NCBI GenBank assembly: GCA_015956445.1
Contig: WIUZ02000002.1
Coordinates: 1,302,001 to 1,366,000 of the forward strand
DNA length: 64,000 bases
Direction: 5' to 3'
Origin: Thelephora terrestris
Taxonomy: Eukaryota > Basidiomycota > Agaricomycetes > Thelephorales > Thelephoraceae
Below, piece after piece: positions 2,721-38,500 of this stretch (within the stretch, counting starts at the first letter, position 1; every line of letters begins with the position of its first letter). Under the pieces are notes generated by a model. The model was not told where the DNA came from. It worked only from the letters and a program-made list of their open reading frames with translations, and did not search any database. The translations under genes were made by a program, and so were the position numbers.

Positions 2721-5700
2721 ATGGAGGCTACGTCTCAGTGCCCCCACTGCCTTGATTTTTTCAAGCCAAGGGGTATCACGGTGCACAAAAAATCATGCCT
2801 ACAAAAAAAACAATCAGCAGAGGATCAAGCAAGATTCATGGCTGATCAACGATTGCGGAGACAAGGTAGGCGAACCGCGCACACAAGTGAATGTGTGAGT
2901 TGCTGATACACTTGTTGGTGCCCACCCAGATTCTGCACGGGTCCCGGACATCCCCGCACCGCATGAAACTGACGCCGATGCTCACATCGGGTCATCGTCG
3001 ATGGGTGTAGCCCCTGAACTCGAGAATTTGGTGGGCGTACCTTGACTAAGTTTGTTATAGGTGCTGATCCTTATCTCAATAGCCCTGTCCGCCACTCTCG
3101 CTCCCCATGATTGAGACACACAGTGATCACTGTGATCTCGATGACAGGAGTGGCTCGGGTGCCGATTCACGCAACACGAACGATGCGGGTGCCAATTTGC
3201 GTAATGCAAACGATGCGGGTGCCAGTTCACATAACATGAATGATGTGGGCGGCTTGGGCGCCAATTCGCGCGATGCAAATGATGCAAGCGGCTCGGACGG
3301 TGCCATTAAGGTTGAGTATCACCCAAACAGCAACCGTGAACCCAAGACATCCACATTTAAGGAATTCAAAAAAAAGGCCGCCAAAGCAGACAGCACACGT
3401 CTGCCAGACCCTGAACCATGGGTGCCGTTCAAGACACAGGAGGATTTTGAGTTTGCAACACTCACACAAGATGCAAGGATGTCAAAGAAGCAAGTCAACA
3501 AATTAATTGACATTTTCCAGAGATGCATTGATAAGGGGAAGGGGACCTTCACATTTTCAAGCCATAAGGAAATGAAGGACACTCTAACACTTGCTGCAGA
3601 ACGACTTCCCAAGGTCTGTTTGTGAACTCTCCTGTATTTTTCATGTTCTCTGATTGTGTTGCCAAAGTTTGAAAAGCAAACTGCCTCTGCAATCTATAAA
3701 GGAAAAACCCATGAATTCGATATTTGGGTGCGGCCAATATGGATGTGGATTGAGGATATGTTGCAGAACCAGGATCTCATTCAACACTTTGAGTGGGATG
3801 CTTGTCACGTGTCAAAGTTTGATGCAAAATCAAACTCTTGGGTTCGGGTTTATGATGAACCATGGACAGGAGACTGTCAGGGCCACTCTACCCCAACAAC
3901 TACCAGTGCACTGAGCCGACTCCGCAGAGTACTCACTAGTTCCACTAGCTTGTGAGAGAACGATCACGTCTCTATTCTTCCGGTAGGTTGTCCGAGGTCA
4001 CTACAAGTCAGGTCGAAATCCTAAAGAGAAACCCAACCTAAACCGTACGTCGTTCGGTTTAACAGACAAGGGTTTATCTCTACAACAGGATTGATGACTC
4101 CACCAGGTGATCGACTGGACGCTCGAGGTGTTCTATAAGTTGAACGCTGGGGTTCTATAGTTACGAGGCGCAGTTGATGCGCAGAGCGGGAGGGAGAGCA
4201 GATGGGGGATGTCTTGGATCAAACAAGAAACTCTGACTTGTCCTTAACTGCAACTGGGCTGAGAAGGGCAGAGGATTTCCTGAGGTAACAAAACTAAGGT
4301 ACTACGATACAGCCACAGTTGCTACTTATACTAAAGGAGTGGCCATGACGTCAATACCCTAATATACCCTTATCAAGTCCAGACAAAGGGAGATAAGGAG
4401 TGTGTGAACGCTAAGTAAGGGAAGCGAGCAAATATGACGCGTGGGAAGATAAAGGACAAAGGGCCTTACTAGCGTGTGAAGGATTGCATAAAAGATAAGG
4501 AATATCCGCATGAAACATAGGGGTAAAGATAACACTAGTCCTAAAAGAAAAAGGGGCATGGGGTCATGAAAGTTCGTACCTGGGGATCACACCCAAGGGC
4601 TAGGTGAGAATCTTCTTGGATGCTTCCTTTGGAGAGGCCAAAGATAGAGACCATGCAGCATCCCTTGTTGTCTGTAGGCGGTAACAGCATCACGGACTAG
4701 TGGCAACCTTATCTTGCGTCCGAACATGAGGAGCGAGGGCCTAGACTCATGGGACATAAGGGATTACAGATTCGCCGGCGTTTCACGCTAACGGTTACTC
4801 CACGTTCGCTTGGCTAACCAGAAAGAGTCTAAGGCACTCCTTCCGAATAACGGCGATTCCTTCCTCCGAGTAGGAGACTGTGATGTGACTGTCCACGTGT
4901 GTGATCAGGGTCCAGGGTTGATCGTAATCGTAAAGTCATGAGGGGTCGTAAAAGGGGTTCGTGATGTCGTAAAGGGGTCATCAGGGTCTTGAGACCTATT
5001 TTTAGTGTGCGCGCGTTCTAGGCGTTCCGGAACGAAGTTCTTCCAAGGCCGTCCCGCGGGCCGAGGTGTCAGCTTGATATAGTAAGCCAACGATGATGGT
5101 ACAGTGGCGGAAGTTGATGTGACCCGGACCAATGAGGTTCGTCGAGGTAGGTCACGTGAAGGATCACCGATCTAGGCTATAAGAAGGACGTCTTCTTGGA
5201 GCCATCCTTGATCAGCAACACCAGCAACTTCCCCATCATCTCACCAAAACATGTCTTTCCCCAACAACCATACCTACAAAGTCGCCAACGGCATCTCCAC
5301 CATCTCCCGTATCGACCGTCGTGCCGCCGCCCGCAAGTCCTACGCCTGTGCAGCGGGAACTCCCTATACCACGGATGATCAGGTATGGGGGAGAGCTAGA
5401 GCTTCTTGTATTAGCGCTAACTCCTTCCTCTAGGTACCGGTCGTACAGCATCGGCTTTAGGCGTTATGCTGACGGTTTGTAGATTTTGGAGGTCGTCACG
5501 GAAGTGGATGCCGAACGTCTCAGGGAGACGATCCCTCACTTGATGGGATTGACCTGGGACGACGAGCTCTGGGTTCGTACGATGATCGCCGAGAAGGTGA
5601 TCTTCCGGATGAGGGGTAGATTCGGGGAGTTGGAGCATCCGATCAAGAAGGAGCTCTGGTACACCCTGCAGAGGGGGATCTACGATCAGGACCTATTGGA

Positions 5701-8700
5701 GCACGGGGCAACCGTTCCTCGGGCCGTCCGTCATGCCACTGCCGCTACCTCGCTGTTGTGGTCGCTCGTTCGGGAGGGGGAGAATAAAGTAGGTTCTCCG
5801 TTTGGATATTCGAGTATGACTCTCGACTAACCAAACTGCCTAGGTTGAACGTTTGGAGCGTGAGGTGAAAGAGGCAAAAGCAGACGTCCTACGTCTGTCG
5901 GCGGAGGGTCTTCAGATGAAGGAGACTCTGGCCGCCTTCCAGCAGGGGACGAACGAGGCATTGGAGGCGATGGTTGCCAACCATCAAGAGTTGATCGCCG
6001 GGCTGAAGGTCAGGGACAACAACATCAAGGGGGCGTTGGCCAGGAGGGATGAAAAGGTAATGCCGCTTTCATCATTTGCTTAGAATGATGGAAGCTGACA
6101 TTTCCTAGACCGAAGAACTCGAGGATGTGGTGGCCGTGTTGACAGCGCAGGTCGCGTCCTTGCAGGATAAGACCTGCAACTGCAAGGAGGGTCCGAAGTT
6201 GGTTGGTCAAGGGACTGCCGACGTTCCGTTCGAGCTGGAGTACGCCGACGAGGTGGTACTCCCATCGCCTAACCCGTCGTCCTATGCGACACCTCCGGTA
6301 GAGAACGCGGTTCCCGTCCCGACTCCGGCTCCGGCTTCTACGTTGGCCGAGTCCGACAAGGAGAACTGTCAGCGTTGTCCTCTGCAGCCGATCAGTCAGC
6401 TGGTGAAGATCGAGGATGAGGTCATGGACGTCGACCGTGCCGAGGATGTTCCGAGGGCCATTGAGGTACGTCCGGTGATCAAGGGGCAGCGTTGTAAACG
6501 CTCTCGACGCCGCCTTGCTCATCGTATGGTCCCTTCGGCTAACCCGTATCCGCGTCCAGTTGAGTCGGATGGTGACCAGTCTGGTCGAGATGGGGGACGA
6601 GAGTTCCGCTATCGGGTCCACCGTCCCTACCGACAGGTCGAGTCGGAGATCCAGCTTCGCCACGAGCTTCGACTCGCAAGAGAGGATCCCACCCAGGGGT
6701 GTGACGAGGGAGACGGAGGGTCGCTCGCCGACTACGTCGATAGTGCTGTCGAACAGTCACCCGGTGATGGAGATGTGGGACCAAGTGTTCCAGAGTTCAG
6801 TGACATCTGGGAGGCTGATCGGTCCGCTCGAAGGCATCTCTTCCTATCGGCTTGAACTAGTCGTTCAGCTGAGTGCCGAAGATGGTGACGCCATGTTCGG
6901 GGAGGTCCTTGCGAGGAGGGGCCAGCACTACGATCTCCGGGATGGACGCTTGATGACCATGAGGCCTGCCGTAGATAGAGTCGACTTTTGAGGACGTTGT
7001 ATAAGCCTTGTATAGCCAGTTGTTCCGTATTGCCGTGAATGTATGCGCGTTTGTGTGTTTTGAATGATGGGTGTGAAGGATAAGGAATGTGAAGCATTCA
7101 AGACATAAGAAGTGGTAAGAAGAGTTCGAAGAAAGAGTGTGTTATAAAAAGTTTAAAAATACCATGTTCCTGACAGAGACCAGTTCTGGAATATTCAGGT
7201 ATGTGATAACCATGTTTTATTATTCGCTGTGTTGTTGACATGTGGGTGAAAAGTCAAACCTTCCCCAGGGAGCAAAGCCACTGGTGCTCAGCTTATATGC
7301 AGACAAATCAAAGCTGTCATCATTTGGCACCAAGAAGGGTTATCCAGTGATTGCACGGTGTGCTAATCTTCCAGTTGAGATACGGAATGGAAAGGGACTT
7401 GGAGGGGGTCGTGTTGTTGGGTGGCTGCCAGTTGTATGTTTCAATCTCTGTTGCTGGTCTCATGTCGTCACTTGTCTGACAATGCATTCAAGGTTGATGA
7501 AGATGCAGCTGAGTCCAGAAAACCCAACTATGTCAACTTCAAACGTGTTATTTGGCATGACTCATTCCGCAAGTTGCTCGCATCAATCCAGGAACTCTCC
7601 AAGATTGGCTATCACATTGAATGTGCAGATAGCATCACCCGTCATGTATATCCAACCATCCTTATACTTTCAGCTGATTATGAAGAACAGTAAGGCTGAT
7701 ATTACACTCCTTGCAACTGAATCTGACACCATTTCAGATGTATTATGGCTCTTATCCAGGGTACAACCTGTGATTTTCCCTGTTCTATATGCCTTGCACC
7801 AAAGAAGGAGATGTGTCAGGGTACAGTCTATGCACTTAGGACTACCCAAAGTATGAAGAAAGTCTATGATGATGCCTTCGGCATGAGGACAGTTGCTGAA
7901 AGGGAGAAGTCCCTCCAGGGTTATGGCCTTCGGGGAACTCCGGTACGTGCAAAGTGACTTGGACAAATGCGCTCACACCAGAAACCTGGCTTGATAGAAT
8001 GTCTTTTGGGAACTTGATAGTTCAGACCCATACCTGGCTCTCTCATTTGACCGATTACACACATCTCACCTCGGTCTGTTCAAAGACCACATCTGGGGAG
8101 TCTTAAAGGAAAATGTTGAAGAAGCTGGCCGACAAGCAATCAGAGATGTTGATAAGAGGTGAGGACAATCTTCCTTTATGATGTCTGTTGTATATGAGAT
8201 TTGATATTAATCCTTTTTAAGGGCTTCCAGATTTCCACGGTGGAGTGGACTTTGTCACTTTTCGAGTGTCATGTCCATTGGATTCAGTGATGGATCAAAG
8301 TTTGAGGATCTCTCAAAGGCACAAGACATCCTCATTCCTGCTGATACACTGACTGATGATGATGTGTACAGATTTCTGTCTTTATTCTTCATGATGTTTT
8401 TGAAGAAAAAACACCAGGCTACCTTCTATTGAAGGTCCTTCGATGCTATATTGAGATAGACATCTATGCAAGCTTTCAAGTTCATACCAATGAAACCATT
8501 GAAAAAGGCCGACTGCAAGTTGAACACTTTTACAAACTCCTGGAAGTAAGTGTTCCTTTCTTTGTTTGATCTTCAGCAAAGCTTATGGTGATAGGCATAC
8601 ATGAAACTTGAAGAATCGAATCATGACAGTGAAGATCCCTCCCTCAAGCAATGGGATTTTCCAAAAGTGCACTTTCTAGCCCACCTTTTTAATGACATCA

Positions 8701-23678: not shown

Positions 23679-23804
23679 TCAAGAGGACATGTTATCCAAA
23701 TCCAGTATCAGCACCTCCCCTGACTCATAACCAGCAATCACAAAGCGACCATCCCACTGTACATTGCTGGCATTTTTATATCTACCAGGAAGTGGGAAGG
23801 TTTT
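23679..23804 (-). pseudogene. 3' tip of the NACHT-WD40 gene, cut off by the Ty3 insertion
   Basis: On the minus strand this stretch encodes a WD40-type strand pair with FVIAGYESGEVLILD and a stop at 23679-23681. It continues, in frame, the open reading frame that stops being host sequence at 35502. The two pieces are separated exactly by the Ty3 element and its GTTTT duplication. The ending G(H/Y)ESG.V.ILD is a normal last WD40 blade edge, so the uninterrupted gene ended here. Confidence 0.85.
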
Positions 23805-24057
23805 TGTCAGCGTGCTGAATTTTATTCCCTTTTTGAACCGTTTTTCACACCCAACTTTCGCCCACTTTCCTTACCTATATCCCTTTCTTGTTTTGTCATT
23901 TCCCTTATCACGACTCACACGTCATCAAAAGGAACGCAGACAAGGACACTGATGATATTACACAAGGCGCGCAGCAAAGATACGAGACTACCAAACCGAC
24001 GAAGTTGAATCCGCCCGGACTCTATGGACGAGGACTAAGGCGTACAAACCCTGGTCG

Positions 24058-25807
24058 TCAAGACCTGGTCTGCCAGTACTCCTCAGCACTGGCAACCTCC
24101 TCCTCCGTCCCCTCCGAGGCATTCTCGTCGACTTCCTCGTCGACCATCTCGACGACCCGAGCTTCCTCCAGACGATGAGCGACGGCCAACTGAACCTCGG
24201 CGCGAAGGCGGTTCCTCGCTGAATCGACCATAGTCTGATCCAGAGTCCTCTGGACTGACCAACCCTCCACTCTCTCGGTCAGTTGAGCCACCAGGCGAAC
24301 GGCCTCCGCTGCACGCTGGACCGACAAGAGCGTAAGGTCGGTTAAGCCGTTCACGTCGACGGACTCCACCGGAATCAGCTCGCCGCGATCCACGCGACAC
24401 TGTAGCATCGTCGCATCGGAATAGGACGGTGGATTCAATGTCTCCACCCTGGCGGACAACGTCGGGATTACTGGGACGCATGCGGTGCGCTGGACGAAGT
24501 GCCCCGCGATAAGGAACCCAACGACGAGCACGGATAGAACGTTGCCCACGCACCGGCGAGATCGACGGAGGCGGGATCGGAACAGCCACTTCGTTCTCCC
24601 CCGCGTACTCCAACTCGGGAGAACTGCTAACCGGATTCACGGCCGTCTCCTCGGACGTCTCGCGAACGACCTCCTCCCCGCCATCAGTATGCGCAGGTGT
24701 GCGGTACGATCCATCGGAAGCTAAAAAGGATGTCAGTGGACAAGCCAAATATGTCAACCGACATCCCACCTATGGGAGAAGCCATCCGATCCGGTATCGA
24801 CCCGTCCTCGGACTCGTCGCGGACCGCAGCTACCGAACGAGTACGGCAGTGACACAACCGCTCGCTCATCGATTCGACTCGAGCGCCCAACAAAGGCAAA
24901 GCGTCGTCCAACGTATCGACCTAGGAATGGCGTGAGCTCTCTTGGGCAAAGACCAGGAGAAGTCGCACCAACCTTGGTGTCGAGCTCATTTAGAGCCCTT
25001 CTATGACGATTGAGCCGACGGTCGACCTCGATCAGGTCTCGTTGAATGGTGTCATCCCGTTCCTTCAAGGACTCGACCAACCGATTGTGTTCTTCACGCA
25101 TCGCCAGCATCTCGCTCTCAAACGTGACGCGAAGCGTATCGTTCATCAGGAGCAGCGTCTTCTTCATGTCCAACGCTTCCGAGTACATCCTACGGGCATC
25201 ATCTTTCGCTTCCTTCACCTCACGCTTCAGCCGCTCATTCTACAAGCCTGTCAGTGTTATCCCACAAGCGGGATGCACAGACCGACTCACCGCTTTCTGT
25301 TCGGTCCTCAAAAGGAACCAGAGACGGTGACCAACGGCTGCTGTATAGTGTTGCGAACGAGTCGCCCCCGGCCACCTTCCTTCGCCGTTTCCGAGATCGT
25401 AGATTCCCATCTTCAAAAGACCCCACAAAGATGACGCCACCGGAGTCTCCCATGGCATACGCAACTCGGTGTCAAACGTGACCCCGCGCATAGACTCTTG
25501 CAACTTGTGGTCGATCAAGTTGTGGTACCACAGTTCGTCGTCTATGGTCAAGTAGTTGGGAGGCTTGGCTATCGTTGCTTCCAGTTGTCGAGCATCCACC
25601 TTGTCGGCAACCGCGAAGATCTACGATGCGATGTCAGTTGTTGCCAGTAAACAGCGACACGTGACGTCGCACCTCGCGATAACTGGGGTACGCCACGTTG
25701 GCGTTCGGGAGGAAGTAACTCTTGTTCTGTACGGAACGTGGATCCGCAGACTCGATGGTAGCAGTGCTGTTCTCAGCACGGAAGACACGATCGGAGATCA
25801 TGGGCAT
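24058..25807 (-). CDS. LTR-resident antisense gene, 5' LTR copy
   Basis: On the minus strand an ATG at 25807 opens exon 1 (25673-25807), followed by exons 25291-25620 and 24973-25239. A fourth exon starts near 24926. All have standard intron borders. The product has an N-terminal stretch ending SADPRSVQNKSYF, a DDELW domain, a coiled coil (ERLKREVKEAK) and a CHC motif. Its tail is Arg/Ser-rich in one frame (24083-24769) and Glu-rich in another (24058-24549). It matches the gene in the 3.3-kb LTR in exon order and in residues (VDA..L..TI, DDELW, REVKEAK, CxC). It is antisense to gag-pol and divergent from the LTR promoter. The function is unknown, and the C-terminal frame is undecided. Confidence 0.65.
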
Positions 25808-26258
25808 AATGGATGAGTAAGTTGGTTAGTGGGATTGTTGATTTGGGAAGAAGGGAGTTTGATGGATCCAATGGCCGGTCGCACTACGCTTTATTCGACC
25901 CTCGACAGCGCCCGCGCCCTATCCGCCATTGGCTCGGCCCATCGTTTCACCGGTCCAGACTCCTCATACATTCGCCTTCGACATTCGCGCCCCACTCGGT
26001 CCTTTGTTGTCCCGATCGGACGAGCTGACGTGTCGTCCCCTCATTGGTTCACCCTTGCATGTGATATTATCCTTTGTCATTCCTTTCCCACACGACGTCA
26101 TGACCCCTTTCTTATTCTCTCACGGACCCTGACCCATTAGTCATTCTTTTATCATTTCAATTCTATACTCCGGGCCGCTTACTGTTCGTGCTTACTCTCG
26201 GCCCTTCTTTGTTCCAAGTTATTATTAGATAGGGTTATCTATGTCCCGGCCACTCTCT

Positions 26259-26266
26259 TATATAAG
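26259..26266 (+). promoter_or_regulatory. TATA box of the 5' LTR
   Basis: TATATAAG lies about 30 bases upstream of the string that matches the primer site, which is the expected RNA start. The same box is in the 3' LTR at 35022-35029. Confidence 0.7.
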
Positions 26267-26740
26267 TACCAGTAGAGTAGCTGAGGACTCCCCATCTTTG
26301 ATATCTCGGGAAGTCCTCTTCTCCTTGCAGCATCGGTGTAATTGCTGTAGGCCACTGAAGAGCTTATCGAGTAACTCCTTGAACCGTTCGCTCTCCTCTC
26401 TCACTCAGTCTTGATCCTTAACCGGTGTTTGAAGCGAGCTCGGACACGACATCGAGTTCCGCACTGCTCTTTGGATCAAGTCATCAGTTTGAGGCGCCAT
26501 CCTCGGGCTCCTGTATCTGCCCTCAGAAGACGATAGGGATTTACCTGATAGAGGCTCGGCACTCCTGCTGTGAATTCGGACAACCTACCGGAGAACGCTC
26601 GTCCATCGCGTTTTGGACCACGTAGACTTTGGGTGGATATAGGGAAGTCGTTCCCCCTTTGCCCCATTGTTTCTTGTTGGTTGGAGTTGCGACTCACCAA
26701 CAGCACTGGTACCTGAAGGGCGAAGAGTGGCCCTGACAAT

Positions 26741-26751
26741 ATATCAAAGAT
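26741..26751 (+). promoter_or_regulatory. Self-priming primer binding site
   Basis: ATATCAAAGAT, two bases after the 5' LTR, is the exact reverse complement of ATCTTTGATAT at 26294-26304. That is where the genomic RNA is expected to start. This is the Tf1/sushi-type arrangement, in which the folded 5' end of the RNA itself primes reverse transcription. No tRNA-like primer site was recognised here. Confidence 0.7.
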
Positions 26752-27034
26752 ACCAGCCGGTACCCTGTTCACCAAACTACTGGATCACGCTCACTGCAGA
26801 TAAATCGGTCGACGACTAACGACTGGTAGCAGAAGAAGCAGATCGCTGCTAGGAATAGCTCGAGAGGAATCGAACACGTCAACAAGTCCACTAGAACTGA
26901 TCTAGGACAACAACCTTCTCAGCACCCCCCCCCCTCTTTCCACAACGTTTCTCTTCCTCACCATCGGAGCACTCATCTTTTTCTAATTCGGCTCCCACCT
27001 CCTTTGCAACCCTCTCACCCCCTGTTCTTCCAAC

Positions 27035-28693
27035 GTGTCAGACAGACCGTGGGAAAACCCCTACCAAACCGGGCAACCTCCCACTCCGAGGCGATTACGC
27101 ACCGGACTTCCTTCCTCCCAACAAACGTCAAGAGCTCCTACCCCTCTTACTCGCACCACCTCCTTACCACCTGCCATGGATCGACCAGAACGCCCCGAAC
27201 TACAACCTTACGAGTTCGAAGATAGTCAAGGCCAACGATACGACCTTCGAGACCCCGTACAGTCAGTAACCCTCCTAGGCTTACTCGGGCAGACCCTGGC
27301 AGAAGAAACCAGACACAGGAGGCAACTCGAGGCAGGACTAATAGGCCATGCGGATGTAGCCGAGCAAGCTCGCCAACGTATCGAAGGGCTAGAACAACAA
27401 CTAAACGCAGCTAACCCTCCCGCTCCCGACCAGTGGCAAAACCTCCTTACTGCGCTTCAACAAGGACGTGCGCCACCCGCTCCTGTACCAAATCCTATCA
27501 CTACGGCACGACTGGGCATCCCCACGAACTTCAAGGAATACCCTGGCACCGGCAAAGACATTAAGGCGATTAAACTACCAGACCCCTTCAACGGTAGAGC
27601 CAACCATGCCGATCCCTTCATCCAATCCCTCGAGACCTACTTCGCTCAAAAGCCGGAATCGATGAAGGCAGCCAAAACCAGGATCCTTACGGCCTGTTCC
27701 TTGATCAACGGATGGCCAGAATCTCAATGGGCTCAACAAGTCGCTGGAGCAGTCACCAGTATGAGAGACAACGACTACTACTTCGACGACTGGTCCCTGT
27801 TCGCTGCAGCATTCGACGAACACTTTGGCGTCCCCGAAAAGAAGCAGAATTACTTCGTACAGCTTACCCAGCTTCAACAAGGGAAGATGCCATGGCCCTC
27901 CTTCCAAGCCGAGTTCGATCGACTCACACGCGAATCGGGCACCCAGCAGGCTCAAGCTTTCATGTACCTCAAGGCGGCTACCAACCCCTACTTGAAAGCC
28001 CTCATCTGTCGACAGCTCCCAATTCCGACCACCTATCTCGATTGGTGCACCCGCGCCAATTCACATTACCAAAACATCATGTCGGAGCGGCAGATGAAGA
28101 CGTTCAACCAAGGGACCTCCAGGGATAACCTTACCCGAGGACAAAGCTTCCAGTACACTCCTCGACGTGCGGCTCCTCAGAATGACCAGGTTTACTACGG
28201 TGAACCAATGGACATCAGTGCGGTGCAGTCCACCCACATCAAACCCACGTTCAACAGAAAAGGTCGTCCTGCCCCTCAGAAAGTCGGAGCACCAGGCCCA
28301 AGTTACTCTCGTCCGCAACGTCCTCAGCAGACCTCGAAGCCACGAGAGAAAGGACAGTTCAAACCCTCCCAAGGCAAGGATTCCTCCAAGCCAGGAAAGA
28401 CCGGATACCAGCGTCCAGACTCTGCCAGCAGATCTGTCTGTTATCGCTGCGGTCAACCCGGCCACTTCAAGAACGCCTGCACTACGCCCCTCGCCCAGAT
28501 CTCCGAGCACCATATCGCTCAACTGGTCGAAAGGTTCGAGGCAGCTGAAGTAGGAGATGGCGAAGCCCAGGAGGAGGATCAGGAAGAAGAAGAAGCCCCC
28601 ATCTCACAAGTCGATGAAGAAGAAGATCCTTACAGCACGTACCTCGCTGAAGAAGGACCCTTCGACACCCCCGTCGAAGAACAGGATTTTTAA
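27035..28693 (+). CDS. gag: Ty3 Gag
   Basis: This 552-residue frame has a Pro/Arg-rich start and a short coiled coil (about residues 95-125). A Ty3-type Gag core follows (about 170-350, with PFNGRANHADPFIQSLETYF and TYLDWCTRA). It ends in a basic linker, the zinc knuckle CYRCGQPGHFKNAC (about 469-482) and an acidic end. The first methionine may instead be the one at 27176 (MDRPERPE). It forms the particle shell and binds the RNA. Pol begins in a different frame 26 bases after its stop. Confidence 0.9.
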   Translation: MSDRPWENPYQTGQPPTPRRLRTGLPSSQQTSRAPTPLTRTTSLPPAMDRPERPELQPYEFEDSQGQRYDLRDPVQSVTLLGLLGQTLAEETRHRRQLEAGLIGHADVAEQARQRIEGLEQQLNAANPPAPDQWQNLLTALQQGRAPPAPVPNPITTARLGIPTNFKEYPGTGKDIKAIKLPDPFNGRANHADPFIQSLETYFAQKPESMKAAKTRILTACSLINGWPESQWAQQVAGAVTSMRDNDYYFDDWSLFAAAFDEHFGVPEKKQNYFVQLTQLQQGKMPWPSFQAEFDRLTRESGTQQAQAFMYLKAATNPYLKALICRQLPIPTTYLDWCTRANSHYQNIMSERQMKTFNQGTSRDNLTRGQSFQYTPRRAAPQNDQVYYGEPMDISAVQSTHIKPTFNRKGRPAPQKVGAPGPSYSRPQRPQQTSKPREKGQFKPSQGKDSSKPGKTGYQRPDSASRSVCYRCGQPGHFKNACTTPLAQISEHHIAQLVERFEAAEVGDGEAQEEDQEEEEAPISQVDEEEDPYSTYLAEEGPFDTPVEEQDF

Positions 28694-28719
28694 AAGGACT
28701 TGTCGTCACAGAGGCCCCG

Positions 28720-31700
28720 ATGAGTCCCCCCTCCACTTTATCTATACAATCGCGCGCGTCATATGATTCTTTTCCCACTCCCGATGTACTAGTATCCGCT
28801 ATGGAAAAGAAATTGCAATCATGTTTTCCCCTCTCCACACAACTCGCTGCGATTGCCTCCAAAGCCCTCTACAGAACACCGTCACGACACACCGTGGATT
28901 TTCCTACGTTGAAACTCGAGATCACAGATACTCGTGGTCACAAATTCATCACCGAAGCGCTCCTCGACTCAGGCGCTCAATCCCTCTACATTTCCAAATC
29001 GTTCGTTGAAGACAACTCTATCCCCACTCGCAAGCTGAACTACCCGGTGTATGCTTTTAACGCCGATGATTCGCCTAACGCTTCCGCTATCACTCACGAG
29101 GCCAGACTTACCTCCAAGATCCAAGGACACACCTCACAAGAATGGTACTTCGTCACTGACATCGGTACCAAACCCTTGATCGTTGGAATGACCTGGCTTC
29201 GCTCCCACAATCCTCTGATCGACTGGCGTTCCGGAAAGTTGGAATTCACCCGTTGCCCTTCCAGCTGCAGAAACGGTGTATCCCCACTCCAACGTTTCCA
29301 GGAACAACTAGATCGAGCTTCCATCACGGCAGAACCTGCTATCTCCGAGTACATCCGACACGTCTATCACGACCCTCACTCGAAAGGCCACAACGCTACA
29401 ACCTGGGCTATGGAAGACTTCAAGAAAAAGAAAGTTCTAACTGTTGAAGACATCCGAGCCGGCCCCTTTCAAGAGTTCGAAGATGTATTCGAAGAATCCA
29501 ATTATCAGGCTCTCCCTCCACACCGTGAATACGATCACGAGATCAAGCTCAAAGACGATTGGGAAACCAAGAAGTGGAAACCCCGAATCTACCCCCTCTC
29601 CTACGACGAACAAAAGGAACTCGACGTATTCCTCGACGAGAACCTCAAGAACGGACGTATCAGACCTTCTGACTCGCCCCTTGCCTCTCCGGTCTTCTTC
29701 ATTAACAAGAAAGACGGAAAGAAACGGATGGTCATCGACTATCGCAAGTTGAACGACATCACCGTCAAGAACGTCTACCCCCTGCCGAGAATAGACGAGC
29801 TTATCCAGAAATGGAAAGGCTGCAAATACTTCTCCGCCATGGACGTTCGGTCGGGATACTATAACATCCGTATGAAGAAGGGCGACGAATGGAAAACTGC
29901 GTTCATTACCAACCGAGGACTCTACGAATCATTGGTCATGACCTTTGGTCTTACCAATGCGCCGGCAACCTTCCAAGCGATGATGAACTCAATCTTCATT
30001 GTCTACATTCGTCGAGGCGACACCAGCACGTTCATTGATGACGTCGGAATCGGAACTGGATCTGACCCCACCGGAAAACTCTCGGACGAAGACTTCCACA
30101 TCAAAGTCGTCAAAGAGATCTTAAAGGTATTCCGAGAACACCACTTGTCGCTAAAAGCCGAAAAGTGCGAATTCCTCCAATCGGAAATCCCTTACCTTGG
30201 TCACATAATCTCCGGTGACGGTATCCGTCCCGACCCCGTCAAACTTTCCGGTATTCGCGATTGGCCAATCCCCACCACTGTCTCCGAACTTCGTTCCTAT
30301 CTGGGAATGATGAACTACTATCGACGTTTCATCCGCGATTTTTCTAATGTCGCACGACCCCTTAACGACCTCTTACGAAAAGACGTACCCTGGTCCTGGA
30401 CTCCTACCCAACAACAGAGTTATCAGAAACTCAAGGACACCCTGCTTAACGACGTTTGCCTTGCTCACCCCGACCAAGAAAAGCCGTTCCTCCTAGAGAC
30501 CGACGCTTCGGCGTACGCCTGGGGAGCGATGCTTTCTCAGCTACAAGACGATGGCAAATGGCGTCCAGTGGGTTGCCTATCGAAAGGATTCCATGATGCA
30601 GAAACACGTTATGCCGTTCACGACCGCGAATTACTCGCAATCATTAACGCCCTCAAGGAATTCCGACACTGGCTGTCTGGAACCAAGACCCCCTTCATGA
30701 TTCTCACGGACCACAAGAATCTAACTTATTTTATGGACAAGCAACAACTGGACGACCGACAAACCCGATGGTATCATCTACTATCGGAGTTCGACTACAA
30801 GCTGGTCTATCGTCCCGGAAAACAATCTTCAGTCCCTGACCACCTCTCACGACGAATGGACCACAAACGGGAAGACGTACCCAAACCGGAAATTGTCATG
30901 ATCCCCCCGGAAAAGATCACCACCGACCACCGCATCGCAGCCTTACGAATAGTCAAGTCCACCATACTCACAGAGCTGTACAACGCTCAAGCATTGGACC
31001 CTCTTATCCTTTCCTTTAACACCACTAAGGAAGGAGAGACTGCCAAGATCCCTGATGGTTGGGGAAAAGCACATGATCTATGGACCTATCGAGGAAAGAT
31101 CTACATTCCGGAACACCTTCGACAGACCGTCTTCCGCGCCCTCCATTCCGAACCTGAAGCAGGACATCCAGGACGAGACGCGACACTCCAGGCCGTACGA
31201 CGAGATTATTACTGGCCGCGTCTCTACAACGATGTGGATGAGTGGATACGTAATTGCGATATTTGTCAACGGACCAAAATACACCGCAGGAAGCCTCACG
31301 GAGAATTGAAGCCGATCGATCCTACTCCACGACCCTGGGGAGTTATCACCACCGACTTCATCACCGGCTTGCCCCCCTGCAAAGGCTATGACGCAATTTG
31401 GACCGTTACGGATAAACGTGGCAAGATCGTTCACGTAGTTCCCACCACCACTACCCTGGATTCCGAAGGTCTATACCACCTTTACCTTCAGAACGTTTGG
31501 AGACTCCATGGAATTTCGGACAAGATCATCTCTGATCGAGGACCCCAATACGCATCGCGCTTTGCCAAAGAAGCCAACCGCAACCTTCAGATCGAGACTG
31601 CTCTTTCTACGGCTTACCACCCGCAGACCGATGGACAATCCGAGAGAACCAACCAAGAAGTCGAACAAGCTTTACGCACAGTCATCTCCTTTCATCAGGA

Positions 31701-32556
31701 CGACTGGGTCGACTGGTTACCTGTGATCGAGTTCGCACTGAACAATCGTTATCACAAGTCACTCAAGACTACCCCCTTCTATGCGAATTACGGTTACCAC
31801 CCTCATATTGGTTCTCTACCCCGGATTGACTCTCCCATCGAATCGGTCGAAGACTTTGTGGAACACCTCCACCAAGTACAGAAGGATACCGCCAAAGCTC
31901 TCGAACAAGCCGCAGTCGACATGAAGCGCTTCTATGACAAACACCGAGGTCCTACCCCTCAGTTCGAAATAGGTCAGAAGGTCCTGCTCGACAACGCTGA
32001 TCTTTCAATCAATCGTCCTTCCCGGAAACTCGCCGAGCGAAGATCGGGCCCCTTCAAGATCCTCGCCAAAGTCGGAACACACGCATACCGACTCGAGTTA
32101 CCTCAACAGTGGAAGAACGTTCACCCCGTTTTTCACGTCTCAAAGCTTGACGCCTATCACGAAGACCCAAAGAACCCCAATCATCCCAGTCCACCTCCAG
32201 ACATTATCGAAGGAGAACCAGAATGGGAAGTCGAAAAGGTTCTCGACGCAAAGTTCATTGGGAAGAAACTCAAGTTCTTGGTCAAGTGGTTGGGCTGGCC
32301 AGATTCGGAAAACTCGTGGCAAGACGAAGTCGATCTCGAGAACGCTCAGGACATGGTTTCGGAGTTCTATCAGGAACACCCGAGCGCCCCGCGACGACTA
32401 GCCGACGGTTCCAAATCCGGTCAACAGCTTACCAAGCGACGAAGACGAGGGAAGAAAAAGATCAACGCCATCGATATGGAATTCGTTCCCTTACGTCCCC
32501 TCACAGAAGTCTCAAGTTGGCCTACTGGACCATTGACTCGAGACGCGTCAATCTAG
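28720..32556 (+). CDS. pol: Ty3 Pol with chromodomain
   Basis: This is a long intact frame of 1278 residues. In order it has a protease (LLDSGAQSLYIS, about residues 85-96), reverse transcriptase (YPLPRIDEL, FSAMDVRSGYYNI, catalytic FIDD at about 440), RNase H (LETDASAYAWGA) and the integrase zinc domain (GHPGRDATL...CDICQRTK). The integrase core follows (TTDFITGLP, SDRGPQYAS, HPQTDGQSERTN) and then a C-terminal chromodomain (EWEVEKVLDAKF...KFLVKWLGW). The chromodomain places it in the chromovirus clade, whose integrases favour marked chromatin. How Pol is translated relative to Gag is not evident from the sequence. Confidence 0.95.
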   Translation: MSPPSTLSIQSRASYDSFPTPDVLVSAMEKKLQSCFPLSTQLAAIASKALYRTPSRHTVDFPTLKLEITDTRGHKFITEALLDSGAQSLYISKSFVEDNSIPTRKLNYPVYAFNADDSPNASAITHEARLTSKIQGHTSQEWYFVTDIGTKPLIVGMTWLRSHNPLIDWRSGKLEFTRCPSSCRNGVSPLQRFQEQLDRASITAEPAISEYIRHVYHDPHSKGHNATTWAMEDFKKKKVLTVEDIRAGPFQEFEDVFEESNYQALPPHREYDHEIKLKDDWETKKWKPRIYPLSYDEQKELDVFLDENLKNGRIRPSDSPLASPVFFINKKDGKKRMVIDYRKLNDITVKNVYPLPRIDELIQKWKGCKYFSAMDVRSGYYNIRMKKGDEWKTAFITNRGLYESLVMTFGLTNAPATFQAMMNSIFIVYIRRGDTSTFIDDVGIGTGSDPTGKLSDEDFHIKVVKEILKVFREHHLSLKAEKCEFLQSEIPYLGHIISGDGIRPDPVKLSGIRDWPIPTTVSELRSYLGMMNYYRRFIRDFSNVARPLNDLLRKDVPWSWTPTQQQSYQKLKDTLLNDVCLAHPDQEKPFLLETDASAYAWGAMLSQLQDDGKWRPVGCLSKGFHDAETRYAVHDRELLAIINALKEFRHWLSGTKTPFMILTDHKNLTYFMDKQQLDDRQTRWYHLLSEFDYKLVYRPGKQSSVPDHLSRRMDHKREDVPKPEIVMIPPEKITTDHRIAALRIVKSTILTELYNAQALDPLILSFNTTKEGETAKIPDGWGKAHDLWTYRGKIYIPEHLRQTVFRALHSEPEAGHPGRDATLQAVRRDYYWPRLYNDVDEWIRNCDICQRTKIHRRKPHGELKPIDPTPRPWGVITTDFITGLPPCKGYDAIWTVTDKRGKIVHVVPTTTTLDSEGLYHLYLQNVWRLHGISDKIISDRGPQYASRFAKEANRNLQIETALSTAYHPQTDGQSERTNQEVEQALRTVISFHQDDWVDWLPVIEFALNNRYHKSLKTTPFYANYGYHPHIGSLPRIDSPIESVEDFVEHLHQVQKDTAKALEQAAVDMKRFYDKHRGPTPQFEIGQKVLLDNADLSINRPSRKLAERRSGPFKILAKVGTHAYRLELPQQWKNVHPVFHVSKLDAYHEDPKNPNHPSPPPDIIEGEPEWEVEKVLDAKFIGKKLKFLVKWLGWPDSENSWQDEVDLENAQDMVSEFYQEHPSAPRRLADGSKSGQQLTKRRRRGKKKINAIDMEFVPLRPLTEVSSWPTGPLTRDASI

Positions 32557-32567
32557 AAGGAGGATCC
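32551..32567 (+). promoter_or_regulatory. Polypurine tract before the 3' LTR
   Basis: A purine-rich run (AGAAGGAGGA) ends just before the TGTCAG of the right LTR, the usual site for plus-strand priming. Confidence 0.7.
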
Positions 32568-35501
32568 TGTCAGCGTGCTGAATTTTATTCCCTTTTTGAA
32601 CCGTTTTTCACACCCAACTTTCGCCCACTTTCCTTACCTATACCCCTTTCTTGTTTTGTCATTTCCCTTATCACGACTCACACGTCATCAAAAGGAACGC
32701 AGACAAGGACACTGATGATATTACACAAGGCGCGCAGCAAAGATACGAGACTACCAAACCGACGAAGTTGAATCCGCCCGGACTCTATGGACGAGGACTA
32801 AGGCGTACAAACCCTGGTCGTCAAGACCTGGTCTGCCAGTACTCCTCAGCACTGGCAACCTCCTCCTCCGTCCCCTCCGAGGCATTCTCGTCGACTTCCT
32901 CGTCGACCATCTCGACGACCCGAGCTTCCTCCAGACGATGAGCGACGGCCAACTGAACCTCGGCGCGAAGGCGGTTCCTCGCTGAATCGACCATAGTCTG
33001 ATCCAGAGTCCTCTGGACTGACCAACCCTCCACTCTCTCGGTCAGTTGAGCCACCAGGCGAACGGCCTCCGCTGCACGCTGGACCGACAAGAGCGTAAGG
33101 TCGGTTAAGCCGTTCACGTCGACGGACTCCACCGGAATCAGCTCGCCGCGATCCACGCGACACTGTAGCATCGTCGCATCGGAATAGGACGGTGGATTCA
33201 ATGTCTCCACCCTGGCGGACAACGTCGGGATTACTGGGACGCATGCGGTGCGCTGGACGAAGTGCCCCGCGATAAGGAACCCAACGACGAGCACGGATAG
33301 AACGTTGCCCACGCACCGGCGAGATCGACGGAGGCGGGATCGGAACAGCCACTTCGTTCTCCCCCGCGTACTCCAACTCGGGAGAACTGCTAACCGGATT
33401 CACGGCCGTCTCCTCGGACGTCTCGCGAACGACCTCCTCCCCGCCATCAGTATGCGCAGGTGTGCGGTACGATCCATCGGAAGCTAAAAAGGATGTCAGT
33501 GGACAAGCCAAATATGTCAACCGACATCCCACCTATGGGAGAAGCCATCCGATCCGGTATCGACCCGTCCTCGGACTCGTCGCGGACCGCAGCTACCGAA
33601 CGAGTACGGCAGTGACACAACCGCTCGCTCATCGATTCGACTCGAGCGCCCAACAAAGGCAAAGCGTCGTCCAACGTATCGACCTAGGAATGGCGTGAGC
33701 TCTCTTGGGCAAAGACCAGGAGAAGTCGCACCAACCTTGGTGTCGAGCTCATTTAGAGCCCTTCTATGACGATTGAGCCGACGGTCGACCTCGATCAGGT
33801 CTCGTTGAATGGTGTCATCCCGTTCCTTCAAGGACTCGACCAACCGATTGTGTTCTTCACGCATCGCCAGCATCTCGCTCTCAAACGTGACGCGAAGCGT
33901 ATCGTTCATCAGGAGCAGCGTCTTCTTCATGTCCAACGCTTCCGAGTACATCCTACGGGCATCATCTTTCGCTTCCTTCACCTCACGCTTCAGCCGCTCA
34001 TTCTACAAGCCTGTCAGTGTTATCCCACAAGCGGGATGCACAGACCGACTCACCGCTTTCTGTTCGGTCCTCAAAAGGAACCAGAGACGGTGACCAACGG
34101 CTGCTGTATAGTGTTGCGAACGAGTCGCCCCCGGCCACCTTCCTTCGCCGTTTCCGAGATCGTAGATTCCCATCTTCAAAAGACCCCACAAAGATGACGC
34201 CACCGGAGTCTCCCATGGCATACGCAACTCGGTGTCAAACGTGACCCCGCGCATAGACTCTTGCAACTTGTGGTCGATCAAGTTGTGGTACCACAGTTCG
34301 TCGTCTATGGTCAAGTAGTTGGGAGGCTTGGCTATCGTTGCTTCCAGTTGTCGAGCATCCACCTTGTCGGCAACCGCGAAGATCTACGATGCGATGTCAG
34401 TTGTTGCCAGTAAACAGCGACACGTGACGTCGCACCTCGCGATAACTGGGGTACGCCACGTTGGCGTTCGGGAGGAAGTAACTCTTGTTCTGTACGGAAC
34501 GTGGATCCGCAGACTCGATGGTAGCAGTGCTGTTCTCAGCACGGAAGACACGATCGGAGATCATGGGCATAATGGATGAGTAAGTTGGTTAGTGGGATTG
34601 TTGATTTGGGAAGAAGGGAGTTTGATGGATCCAATGGCCGGTCGCACTACGCTTTATTCGACCCTCGACAGCGCCCGCGCCCTATCCGCCATTGGCTCGG
34701 CCCATCGTTTCACCGGTCCAGACTCCTCATACATTCGCCTTCGACATTCGCGCCCCACTCGGTCCTTTGTTGTCCCGATCGGACGAGCTGACGCGTCGTC
34801 CCCTCATTGGTTCACCCTTGCATGTGATATTATCCTTTGTCATTCCTTTCCCACACGACGTCATGACCCCTTTCTTATTCTCTCACGGACCCTGACCCAT
34901 TAGTCATTCTTTTATCATTTCAATTCTATACTCCGGGCCGCTTACTGTTCGTGCTTACTCTCGGCCCTTCTTTGTTCCAAGTTATTATTAGATAGGGTTA
35001 TCTATGTCCCGGCCACTCTCTTATATAAGTACCAGTAGAGTAGCTGAGGACTCCCCATCTTTGATATCTCGGGAAGTCCTCTTCTCCTTGCAGCATCGGT
35101 GTAATTGCTGTAGGCCACTGAAGAGCTTATCGAGTAACTCCTTGAACCGTTCGCTCTCCTCTCTCACTCAGTCTTGATCCTTAACCGGTGTTTGAAGCGA
35201 GCTCGGACACGACATCGAGTTCCGCACTGCTCTTTGGATCAAGTCATCAGTTTGAGGCGCCATCCTCGGGCTCCTGTATCTGCCCTCAGAAGACGATAGG
35301 GATTTACCTGATAGAGGCTCGGCACTCCTGCTGTGAATTCGGACAACCTACCGGAGAACGCTCGTCCATCGCGTTTTGGACCACGTAGACTTTGGGTGGA
35401 TATAGGGAAGTCGTTCCCCCTTTGCCCCATTGTTTCTTGTTGGTTGGAGTTGCGACTCACCAACAGCACTGGTACCTGAAGGGCGAAGAGTGGCCCTGAC
35501 A
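32568..35501 (+). repeat. 3' LTR
   Basis: Same length as the 5' LTR, offset by 8763 bases throughout. Two substitutions were seen by eye (near 32642 and 34794). Confidence 0.95.
32821..34570 (-). CDS. LTR-resident antisense gene, 3' LTR copy
   Basis: Identical in layout and, as far as seen, in protein to the copy at 24058-25807. Its promoter lies inside the element, between this gene and the LTR TATA box at 35022-35029. It reads toward the 3' end of pol, so its transcript could overlap the chromodomain end of pol in antisense. Confidence 0.6.
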
Positions 35502-38500
35502 GTTTTTGTGGTGCACTTGTCCTCAATTCTAACCCCAAATAGATCCCCATCATACTCAGCAATTAGCTCTGGATGGGGTCTGTCTGAGGCAATCCCAGGT
35601 AATTGGATAGGAATAGGCTCTTGAGGCCCAAAGTCCCAAGCCTGATTGTGTTCACTCAAGACTGCTACCTTTGAACCATCCAAACAGAGGGGGTCAAACT
35701 TCATTGTATCTGGCTCCATTGCCACCTCACTCATGAGCTCTCCTGTCCACAGGGAAAAGGCTTGAACATGAAGAGTGGATAGACAAAAAAACCTTAACCC
35801 ATCCCCTGCTATCCTGACATCATCGATAAAACCATCACTCAACGCCAGGGATCTCCCTCCCCCAGTGTCCCAGATGTATATGTTAGGATAGACTTCCCCA
35901 ACCACAATTAACCTGTCACCAATCAGTTGCATATCTCCAAACTGGATGTCTTTAGCTTGAGTTTGGAATGTTTTTAGACACTGGCCAGTGAAGATGCCCC
36001 AGGCCTTTACTATGCCCTCCTTATCAATTGAAAAGGCAAGACCATTCTTTGATTGCATGCTGACAGCCATAATTGGGGCTTTAGTGGGTGTTGTAGACTC
36101 TGCACCAGATGTAACTGGGTCTGAAAATGAGTGACTGATTTCCCAGAACTTGATTCCATCATTGTCTGTTGAAACGAGGGTGTGAGGGGAGGGAAAGGCA
36201 ATGGAATTGAAGCCTTGCCCAACAAAGGACATGACAACCTGAAGGGAGTCTGAGCTAGTAGTGTCCAAGAGGTAGATTTTGCAGTGAGTGATACAAGCAA
36301 TGAGCTTTCCATCAGGAGAAAAACAGCACTTGGAGAAACTTGCAGTAGGGTCATGGAATCTTGCAACAACCTCTCCACACTTAGTTTCCTGAACCACAAC
36401 ATCTCTTTCATTGCATGAAACAAGCTGAGTTCCATCTGAGGATAATTCAATGTAATCACTGGTGATTGGTGGACCAATACAATAGCCATTGGTTCCCCAC
36501 CACCACACAGTGTTGCTATCCCTGGATGTAGACAGGAGAAGTTGAGGGTCTGTTGGAGAAAAACTGAAAACTGGCGAATTAGGCCAGTGTATGATCTTTA
36601 TGCTATAACCCCCCACTGTTTCTATATTCCAAAGCCAGATTGTGCCATCCTCACATCCTGTGGCAACCTTGGTATTGTCTGCTGAGATGGAAACAGACTT
36701 GACTTCATCACTACAGTCAAAGGTTTTGATAACTCCACCAGTCTGGACATCCCAGAGTTTGGCAGTGTTATCAGCACTCCCAGACACAAGCAATGTCCCA
36801 TCTGTTGAGAAGGCAAGAGATTGAATAGTGTCTGAGTGCCCAGAGAGAGTGGCTGTCTGGCTGCCTGTTGTTGCATCAAGGATAATGATTTTTTCTCTGA
36901 TGCCAACTGCAATGACATTATTCTTGCAGGCAAGGGCATGACATTGACGATCAAAGGAAACCACACGTTTGGATTTTGCCCATTCTGCAGGACCCACTAC
37001 CATCCTGATCTTTTGTGGGAGCATTGGACTATAGTATTGATAGAGCCAGGATGATTGGGGACAAAATTGGAGAGCAGAGTTGTATATGCAATCAGGAAGC
37101 TTGTGGATGTCATCAAATCTCTCCAGGATAAGATTCTTGCTATCTCTTGTCCACTTGCAAGATGCTCCTGTCTAAAAATGAATGAGCACAGGCCTTAGTA
37201 GAGGTTCTACATATTGCTTACCAACGAATACCACTGATCTACATCATTGAGAGCATAAACACCAATGTCAAGGTTTTCGATTAAGGCAAGGACTTCAATC
37301 CAGAACAGGAGATTGGTCATAAAGAACTTGTCAATTGCCTTGTGGACTTCCTCAAGATTATCACCACTGCTAGAAATCTTTGCAAGATGCCTTGCCCAGA
37401 ACTTGCATGCATATTCCAAGGCATCACTGATGTATGTGGCCCTGAGTTCTGGAAGGTTCTCAATCTCACTGAGGTCTCTATAGTTATCCAAGTTGCAGAT
37501 GTTCATCTTCAACCCACTCTCCATTACACTGAGGCAGGAAAGCAGGATCTCCTTGTGATGAATTGAAGGGTTGATGAAGAAGTGGCTGTTGGTGCATCGA
37601 CTTGAGTCTGTGAGAAAGTCTGGAAATGACTTGTGGAAGATTCGAACAGGATGTTCTTGGTTTGGCGGGACAAGGAGGAGGGAATGGAGGGTGTGTAGAG
37701 AGCTGGACACTCTGTCGGGGGTAACATAGTTGCTGAGGAGGGCTGAGAAGGTTTTGATAGACAGGGGTTGGAAGACAAGCACCACTGCCCCCAATACAGA
37801 TTTGAACTGGGAGTAGAGCCTGAGATCACCTGGATCTGCATCAAAAAAAGCTTGACCCAGGACCTGGGTATACAGGAGATCAATGCCTGACCTCCCTTCA
37901 TGGAAGGTGTCTTGGGGAAGTGAAATAATGAGGGCAAGCCTCTCATTAGGTGGGTGGAGATGGGATGCAATGAACTTGACAACTGTTGAAGCATAGATGA
38001 AAAACCCAGATGCCTTCTTGCAGAGAATGTCAATGGTGTCCTGGTCAGGCCAGTCCTCTTCAAGGCTGCAGCTGCTTCGATTTTCAGCAATATCAAGGAA
38101 CTTGGCTTTTAAGAACAGCCTGATATCACTGTCCACCAAAGAGGGTTGAACCTCATGGAGTAGAAGTACTTCTGTGTGAGGTCGGAGTAACCTTAGACGG
38201 AACCCAGAACGAATCCTGGGTTCAGGCCTGCCAGTGATGAAGAACTTGATGAGGGGGATCCTGTCCACATATTGGGAGAGCACAGAGAGGAGGGCAGATG
38301 CAGGTTCCTTGTCCTGACACTCGTCGAGAGCATCAATGATGATGAGGGCGGGCAGTTGTGTTGTACGGAATGGACCAACAATGAGCTTCTCCATCTGGGA
38401 ACAAAGGGATTCTCGTCCAACATCAGGGTTCGCTGTCAAGATTGGGAGTAATGCCTCTCGGAATTGTGGATATCGGTAGGATAGTTGGAATGCAAGGGTA

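What the first reader, a model, noticed from the sequence alone, without database searches (positions are those of the whole stretch)
23805..35501. Multi-exon gene inside a retroelement's LTRs, antisense to gag-pol
Most of the U3 part of both 2934-bp LTRs is a spliced gene on the opposite strand (minus, ATG at 25807 and 34570). It has its own exon-intron structure and lies divergent from the LTR promoter. The product has a DDELW domain, a coiled coil and a CHC motif. A spliced cellular-type gene inside an LTR is unusual, and because each LTR has one the element carries two copies. HBZ of HTLV-1 and antisense extra ORFs in some plant LTR elements are distant parallels. I do not recall this family being described, but could not search.
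Basis: partly seen in the sequence, partly recalled or inferred. Interest (0 to 1): 0.85.

Follow-up and report, generated by a model that had tools for sequence, protein, structure and literature searches.

The report
Spliced antisense gene inside retrotransposon LTRs
In a fungal genome, the repeated ends of one group of retrotransposons contain a gene, predicted to be spliced, that is read in the opposite direction to the element's own genes; selection has preserved its protein, and most of its several hundred copies lie outside complete elements, many as lone repeats.

Summary
The element at 23805-35501 is a Ty3/gypsy chromovirus with 2934-bp LTRs (2 mismatches) and a 5-bp target duplication. 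About 70% of U3 is a minus-strand gene with six predicted exons (not four), about 495 aa. Exons 1-3 show position-3-biased substitutions and one frameshift among 24 other copies; introns and flanks carry many indels. dN/dS is about 0.08 for variants shared by 9 or more copies but 0.72 for private ones: selection acts on the propagating element, then single copies decay. A sister family (pol C-terminus about 70% identical) carries a homologous antisense gene in its LTR with three introns in the same places (31% protein identity); a third LTR lineage has it too. At least 300 gene copies stand against 11 gag-pol loci; of 24 other copies with both LTR ends, 19 are solo LTRs with exact target duplications. 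Nothing in Pfam or the PDB matches above threshold. Expression and function are untested. Best reading: an element-encoded accessory protein, probably a nuclear regulator or helper, copied into both LTRs and surviving solo-LTR formation, its introns safe because genomic RNA is the opposite strand.

The parts
23805..35501 (+). Ty3/gypsy chromovirus element inserted in a WD40-repeat gene
23805..26738 (+). 5' LTR, TGTCAG...CTGACA
32568..35501 (+). 3' LTR
23800..23804 (.). target-site duplication GTTTT (left)
35502..35506 (.). target-site duplication GTTTT (right)
25673..25807 (-). antisense gene predicted exon 1 (ATG at 25807), 5' LTR copy
25291..25620 (-). predicted exon 2, DDELW domain
24973..25239 (-). 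predicted exon 3, coiled coil
24770..24920 (-). predicted exon 4, C-x-C motif
24458..24720 (-). predicted exon 5, basic block; 3' end uncertain
24058..24399 (-). predicted exon 6 and stop; 5' boundary uncertain
32821..34570 (-). second copy of the gene in the 3' LTR (same exons, +8763)
26259..26266 (+). TATATAAG, predicted LTR (sense) promoter
26294..26304 (+). ATCTTTGATAT, predicted start of R, complementary to the PBS
26741..26751 (+). predicted self-priming PBS (11 nt)
   Evidence: a different 12-nt pair holds in the sister family
26987..28693 (+). gag open frame (stop to stop) with zinc knuckle
28651..32556 (+). pol open frame (stop to stop): protease, RT, RNase H, integrase, chromodomain
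3875..7175 (.). solo LTR of the sister family, TSD GAGAC; its antisense gene is on + (exon 1 5251-5385, exon 2 from 5483)
1..1702 (.). partial sister-family LTR at the window edge (gene on +)

Best explanation
U3 of this chromovirus group carries an accessory gene on the strand opposite to gag-pol. SHOWN from sequence: an open reading through six exons with canonical intron ends, protein-level purifying selection on variants shared among copies, homologues in the LTRs of a sister family and of a third lineage, near-neutral private variants in single copies, and at least 300 copies, of which 19 of 24 that could be judged are solo LTRs with exact target duplications. INFERRED: a promoter divergent from the LTR's TATA/R promoter makes an antisense mRNA that is spliced and translated. 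The sense genomic RNA does not show these splice signals, so the introns survive reverse transcription, which also copies U3, gene included, into both LTRs. The protein (DDELW domain, coiled coil, C-x-C, basic block) most likely acts in the nucleus as a regulator or helper of the element, such as an activator or anti-silencing factor of the LTR promoter.
For: Frame-specific constraint in exons 1-5. Omega about 0.08 for variants shared by 9 or more copies against 0.72 for private ones; codon-model omega 0.077, 2 x delta lnL about 1286 against omega 1 with kappa held at 6.0. Introns 1-4 keep GT-AG in 27, 28, 28 and 28 of 28 complete copies. Homologous gene, same orientation, introns 1-3 in the same places by eye, in the sister family whose 143-aa pol C-terminus is 69-71% identical. 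Each of the 11 gag-pol loci of the two families has an exon-2 match, antisense to pol, on both sides (coordinates). Third lineage, L072, also starting at TGTCAG. Self-priming pairs differ between the two families but stay complementary.
Against: No transcript, splice or protein evidence was available. No family match gives a function. The one structure model is poor (mean pLDDT 54.9). If solo copies worked freely in trans, selection on the element's own copy should be weak, yet it is strong; so either solo copies are silent or the protein acts in cis. Intron 5 is uncertain: 2 of 28 copies lose its acceptor and 2 its donor at 24457, and variants in 24427-24379 fit a rival boundary about as well. 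Private variants still show mild constraint (0.72), so the contrast is one of degree.
Confidence: 0.7

Rival explanations
1. The protein is a repressor or copy-number (immunity) factor: solo LTRs left by earlier insertions keep making it and restrain new copies.
For: At least 300 gene copies against 11 gag-pol loci; 16 of 28 other complete coding regions are intact.
Against: Constraint is strongest on variants shared among copies and nearly lost in private ones (omega 0.08 against 0.72), the reverse of what host-level selection for immunity predicts.
Confidence: 0.15
2. The solo-LTR genes are domesticated: the host selects them and the element is incidental.
For: 139 of 150 scored exon-2 copies have no stop in the matched stretch, and 150 of 150 in the sister family; private omega is somewhat below 1.
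Against: Private variants are near neutral (N 223, S 119, omega about 0.72); 12 of 28 complete copies count as broken; 19 solo LTRs sit in their own target duplications at separate places.
Confidence: 0.07
3. Only the antisense RNA matters (silencing or promoter interference); the open frames are a by-product.
For: Antisense LTR transcripts without coding capacity are known (passages of PMC7264820).
Against: The constraint follows codon positions and switches frame at introns; protein homology persists at 31% identity in another family.
Confidence: 0.04
4. A chance open frame or passively captured host gene with no role for the element.
For: No known protein family; GC-rich sequence can stay open by chance.
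Against: Omega 0.077; present in LTRs of three lineages.
Confidence: 0.02

Closest known systems
Antisense additional ORFs (aORF-3R) of plant gypsy elements: Grande gene23, RIRE2, Retand TRP28 (PMC7264820 and PMC11963269, passages)
   Same: Element-borne gene antisense to gag-pol, in many or most copies; a regulatory role is suspected and the function is unknown.
   Different: Those lie between pol and the 3' LTR, so they should be lost on solo-LTR formation (inference). Here the gene is inside U3, two copies per element, with five predicted introns, and is found in solo LTRs. No TRP28/PF04195 match.
HBZ of HTLV-1 (recalled; mentioned in passages of PMC11963269)
   Same: Antisense gene of a retroelement, transcribed from an LTR-associated antisense promoter.
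   Different: HBZ is a bZIP protein encoded mainly outside the LTR (recalled); no bZIP match here.
MMTV sag and lentiviral nef, genes in or overlapping U3 (recalled)
   Same: Protein-coding sequence lying in U3 and therefore duplicated in both LTRs.
   Different: Those are in the sense orientation; this one is antisense with several predicted introns.
Tf1-like self-primed Ty3/gypsy elements (recalled; self-priming described in a passage of PMC2864245)
   Same: Chromodomain gypsy pol; 11-12 nt after the 5' LTR match the predicted start of the transcript.
   Different: Tf1 has short LTRs and no LTR gene (recalled).

Membership tests
Ty3/gypsy chromovirus | PR-RT-RNaseH-integrase order with a C-terminal chromodomain | tested here: met
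   Pfam RVP_2, RVT_1, RT_RNaseH, Integrase_H2C2, SH3_Tf2-1 and Chromo in this order, all above cut-off; the rve core is below its cut-off (26.3 against 32.6 bits)
Ty3/gypsy chromovirus | LTR pair, short inverted ends, short TSD | tested here: met
   2934-bp LTRs TGTCAG...CTGACA, 5-bp TSD
Self-primed (Tf1-type) elements | PBS complementary to the start of R | tested here: met
   11-nt match downstream of a TATA box; a different 12-nt pair in the sister family. The RNA start itself was not measured
Plant antisense aORF (Retand type) | located between pol and the 3' LTR | tested here: not met
   gene lies within U3; pol ends at 32556, 11 bases before the 3' LTR
Plant antisense aORF (Retand type) | TRP28 domain (PF04195) | tested here: not met
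   not among Pfam matches at E up to 10
HBZ-like antisense regulator | bZIP domain | tested here: not met
   no bZIP among Pfam matches; a coiled-coil signal is present
HBZ-like antisense regulator | spliced antisense transcript | not testable with these tools
   no RNA data; introns inferred from sequence

The most novel reading that the evidence does not exclude
Solo-LTR formation, normally the death of an element, here leaves a live gene. The family keeps a distributed accessory genome of hundreds of stand-alone, promoter-equipped, often intact antisense genes serving a handful of gag-pol copies in trans, so element 'corpses' still shape the fate of the living copies (help or immunity).
Probability: 0.2. 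Interest if true: 0.88.

Novelty: new variant of a known kind. Interest (0 to 1): 0.75.

Why it matters
Antisense accessory genes of retroelements are known, but a multi-intron gene inside U3 changes the biology: it is copied twice per insertion, survives LTR-LTR recombination, and keeps introns through reverse transcription. It gives a natural test of how an element's accessory gene behaves when gene copies outnumber gag-pol loci by more than 25 to 1. It also warns annotators: such genes could be counted as expanded host gene families, and such LTRs as cellular loci.

Tried and rejected
1) A transmembrane-segment reading within the frame of 24058-24636: rejected for the part upstream of about 24460, because substitutions there follow the other frame. 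2) An 83-nt intron 24553-24471: gives an immediate stop. 3) An intron 5 at 24427-24379: fitted one variant analysis but was dropped in favour of 24457 (or 24460)-24400, because the third-lineage copy keeps the acceptor of the latter and not of the former. and the codon runs used the dropped model; one search repeats them with the kept one (omega 0.075 becomes 0.077). 4) Relatives elsewhere: scans of viral contigs and prokaryote genome contigs found none by tblastn. No collection of fungal genomes was available, so spread beyond this genome is unknown. 5) A first motif pattern for a third family gave 9 matches (3 in the control); four shared one sequence, and two of those fall inside fetched copies of the window family; none was aligned. 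A second pattern found the third lineage. 6) AlphaFold on exon 2 with three window sequences: mean pLDDT 54.9, helical, judged too weak for a fold search, which was not run. 7) Host identity: a paper search on genome size gave a Pleurotus assembly of nearly the same size but 15 scaffolds rather than 60; not shown to be the host. 8) Papers: in the listings I saw no title or abstract start that describes a gene inside the LTRs of a fungal element; passages only were read of PMC7264820, PMC11963269, PMC2864245, PMC7641404, PMC4905642 and PMC12387193.
Full report
THE ELEMENT. The two LTRs, 23805-26738 and 32568-35501, are 2934 bp long with 2 mismatches, end in TGTCAG...CTGACA and are flanked by the duplicated 5-mer GTTTT. 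Between them are a gag frame with a zinc knuckle and a pol frame with protease, RT, RNase H, integrase and chromodomain. Joining the two host flanks gives an open frame of 596 aa of a WD40-repeat protein that runs about 40 codons past the junction, so the insertion split a host gene. Just inside the 5' LTR, 26741-26751 is the exact complement of 26294-26304, about 30 bases downstream of TATATAAG. This is the geometry of self-priming; in the sister family a different 12-nt pair sits at the corresponding places. U3 is therefore taken as 23805-26293.

THE ANTISENSE GENE. On the minus strand the frame starts at ATG 25807 and runs through predicted exons 25807-25673, 25620-25291, 25239-24973, 24920-24770, 24720-24458 and 24399-24058, a 495-aa reading. 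Introns 1-4 are 52, 51, 52 and 49 nt, GT-AG. Introns 1, 2 and 4 hold CTGAC and intron 3 CTCAC as likely branch points (sequences; the motif is recalled). Among 28 other copies that cover the whole coding region, GT-AG is kept in 27, 28, 28, 28 and 24 for introns 1 to 5. Intron 5 is the weakest. Its donor is either of two GT (24457, 24460) that differ by one codon; 26 of 28 copies have at least one of them. Variants switch from one frame to another near 24428, which also fitted a rival intron, 24427-24379. The third-lineage copy decides for the kept model by its acceptor, but it is a single, broken copy.

SELECTION. Copies were found with the exon-2 protein: 568 candidates, the best 150 scored, identity 85-100%, 139 of 150 without a stop in the matched stretch. 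I fetched 60 of these, from the lower-identity part of the list, besides 8 given by the search; two of those 8 are the window's own LTRs and were left out of the counts. In 24 complete or nearly complete LTR copies, differences from the window by codon position 1/2/3 are 25/11/242 in exon 1, 186/107/779 in exon 2, 69/30/545 in exon 3 and 47/45/374 in exon 4; exon 5 follows suit in its own frame (65/38/402 over 24720-24471). Indels number 0, 1, 0 and 3 in exons 1-4, against 32, 8, 7 and 53 in introns 1-4 and 146 and 100 in the upstream and downstream LTR parts. These counts are pairwise, so shared changes are counted more than once. Exon 6 is less clear: most of it follows its own frame, but 24255-24211 varies mainly in another. 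Each variant was then classed once, by how many copies carry it. Omega is about 0.72 for private variants (N 223, S 119), 0.40 for 2-3 copies, 0.31 for 4-8 copies and 0.08 for 9 or more (N 36, S 228). A codon model on 16 intact copies plus the window gives omega 0.077 (lnL -6371.9 against -7015.1 with omega fixed at 1). That set was chosen for being intact, so it leans low; the variant classes use all copies. Sixteen of 28 complete copies are intact by BLAST-projected alignment; by MAFFT, on a partly different set, 17 of 24 others are, and one copy, L031, is judged differently by the two. This gradient is what an element-level gene should show: strong constraint while the lineage transposes, decay once a copy sits in place.

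WHERE THE COPIES LIE. Of 24 other copies with both LTR ends in the fetched stretch, 19 are single LTRs flanked by an exact 5-bp duplication; 5 are not. Of 75 flanks longer than 30 bases (up to 390 bases each), only one, the window element's own, matched the gag-pol interior. The 143-aa integrase-end/chromodomain query found 26 candidates, all scored: 3 loci at 99%, 8 at 69-71% and 12 weak ones at 29-40%. Loci that have lost this part of pol would be missed. So at least 150 gene copies of this family stand against 3 such loci. An exact 25-base pattern across the exon-2 splice site counts 133 copies.

THE SISTER FAMILY. The 3' LTR of the 70% family (3293 bp in L070) carries a gene in the same antisense orientation. 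Proteins align at 31% over W residues 1-380, E 3e-33 (W is the window's family). DDELW, the C-x-C and a block RPAHRM are shared. Introns 1, 2 and 3 fall at the same places, by eye; the sister gene has an open frame through the place of intron 4. Its exon 2 has 601 candidates; 150 scored, 150 of 150 without a stop. Each of the 11 gag-pol loci of the two families has an exon-2 match antisense to pol on both sides (coordinates; two sister elements share an LTR, giving 21 copies). The pol C-terminus keeps about 70% identity where the antisense protein keeps 31%, so the protein seems to evolve fast between families although constrained within one; only that part of pol was compared. Two sister LTRs lie in this window, 3875-7175 (solo, TSD GAGAC) and 1-1702.

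A THIRD LINEAGE. A motif pattern hit three loci outside both families plus one sister variant. Exon 2 is about 64-66% identical to W; five loci are known, four of them without a stop in exon 2. The two copies that I read are broken: L072 has stops in exons 1 and 2, and in L071 the homology breaks off before a tandem repeat array. L072 starts at TGTCAGGGCCACTC and keeps a TATA and ATCTTTGATAT, so it is an LTR too. It lacks intron 4 exactly. Absence in this copy and in the sister suggests intron 4 was gained in the window's family, or lost twice.

FUNCTION. Pfam and PDB sequence searches give nothing above cut-offs (the best sub-threshold Pfam hit, Mim2 at 7e-4, lies where the exon-3 frame is read on past the predicted exon end). 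Residues 151-268 have a heptad hydrophobic signal (1 of 2000 shuffles). A basic block in exon 5 and an acidic C-terminus are visible. The AlphaFold model of exon 2 is helical but poor. A nuclear regulator or helper is therefore inference, by parallel with plant antisense genes, for some of which nuclear location is reported (passages of PMC7264820; see also PMC11963269) and with HBZ.

COMPARISON AND NOVELTY. Plant antisense genes lie between pol and the 3' LTR; U3 genes of MMTV and lentiviruses are in sense (recalled). I saw no description of a spliced antisense gene inside the LTRs of a fungal element in the listings, which cover open-licence papers only. High solo-LTR numbers in mushrooms are known: 609 in one Pleurotus strain (passage of PMC4905642). 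So the solo excess by itself is not new; what seems new is that these LTRs carry a gene.

LIMITS. One genome; no transcripts; no other fungal genomes searched; copy numbers are lower bounds because only the best 150 candidates are scored; most gene copies were not fetched, so their LTR context is known only for those examined.

Noticed in passing
window 35507-37171 and left of 23800, minus strand: The element interrupts a WD40-repeat gene near its 3' end; the joined flanks give a 596-aa open frame.
   Followed up: yes
window 1-1702 and 3875-7175: Two LTRs of the sister family, one a complete solo LTR with TSD GAGAC, each with the antisense gene (or part of it) on the + strand.
   Followed up: partly
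window 24721-24769; L072 about 2130-2200: Intron 4 is present in the window family and exactly absent in the third-lineage copy L072: an intron gain or loss in a retroelement gene.
   Followed up: partly
L071 446-834: A tandem repeat array of about 18-bp period lies beside the broken-off third-lineage gene.
   Followed up: no
window 28651-28693: The gag and pol open frames overlap by 43 bases in different frames, suggesting a ribosomal frameshift for Gag-Pol.
   Followed up: no
G000:C23 1030848-1049773: Two sister elements in tandem share a middle LTR (three gene copies 9.3 kb apart), as unequal LTR recombination would leave.
   Followed up: no
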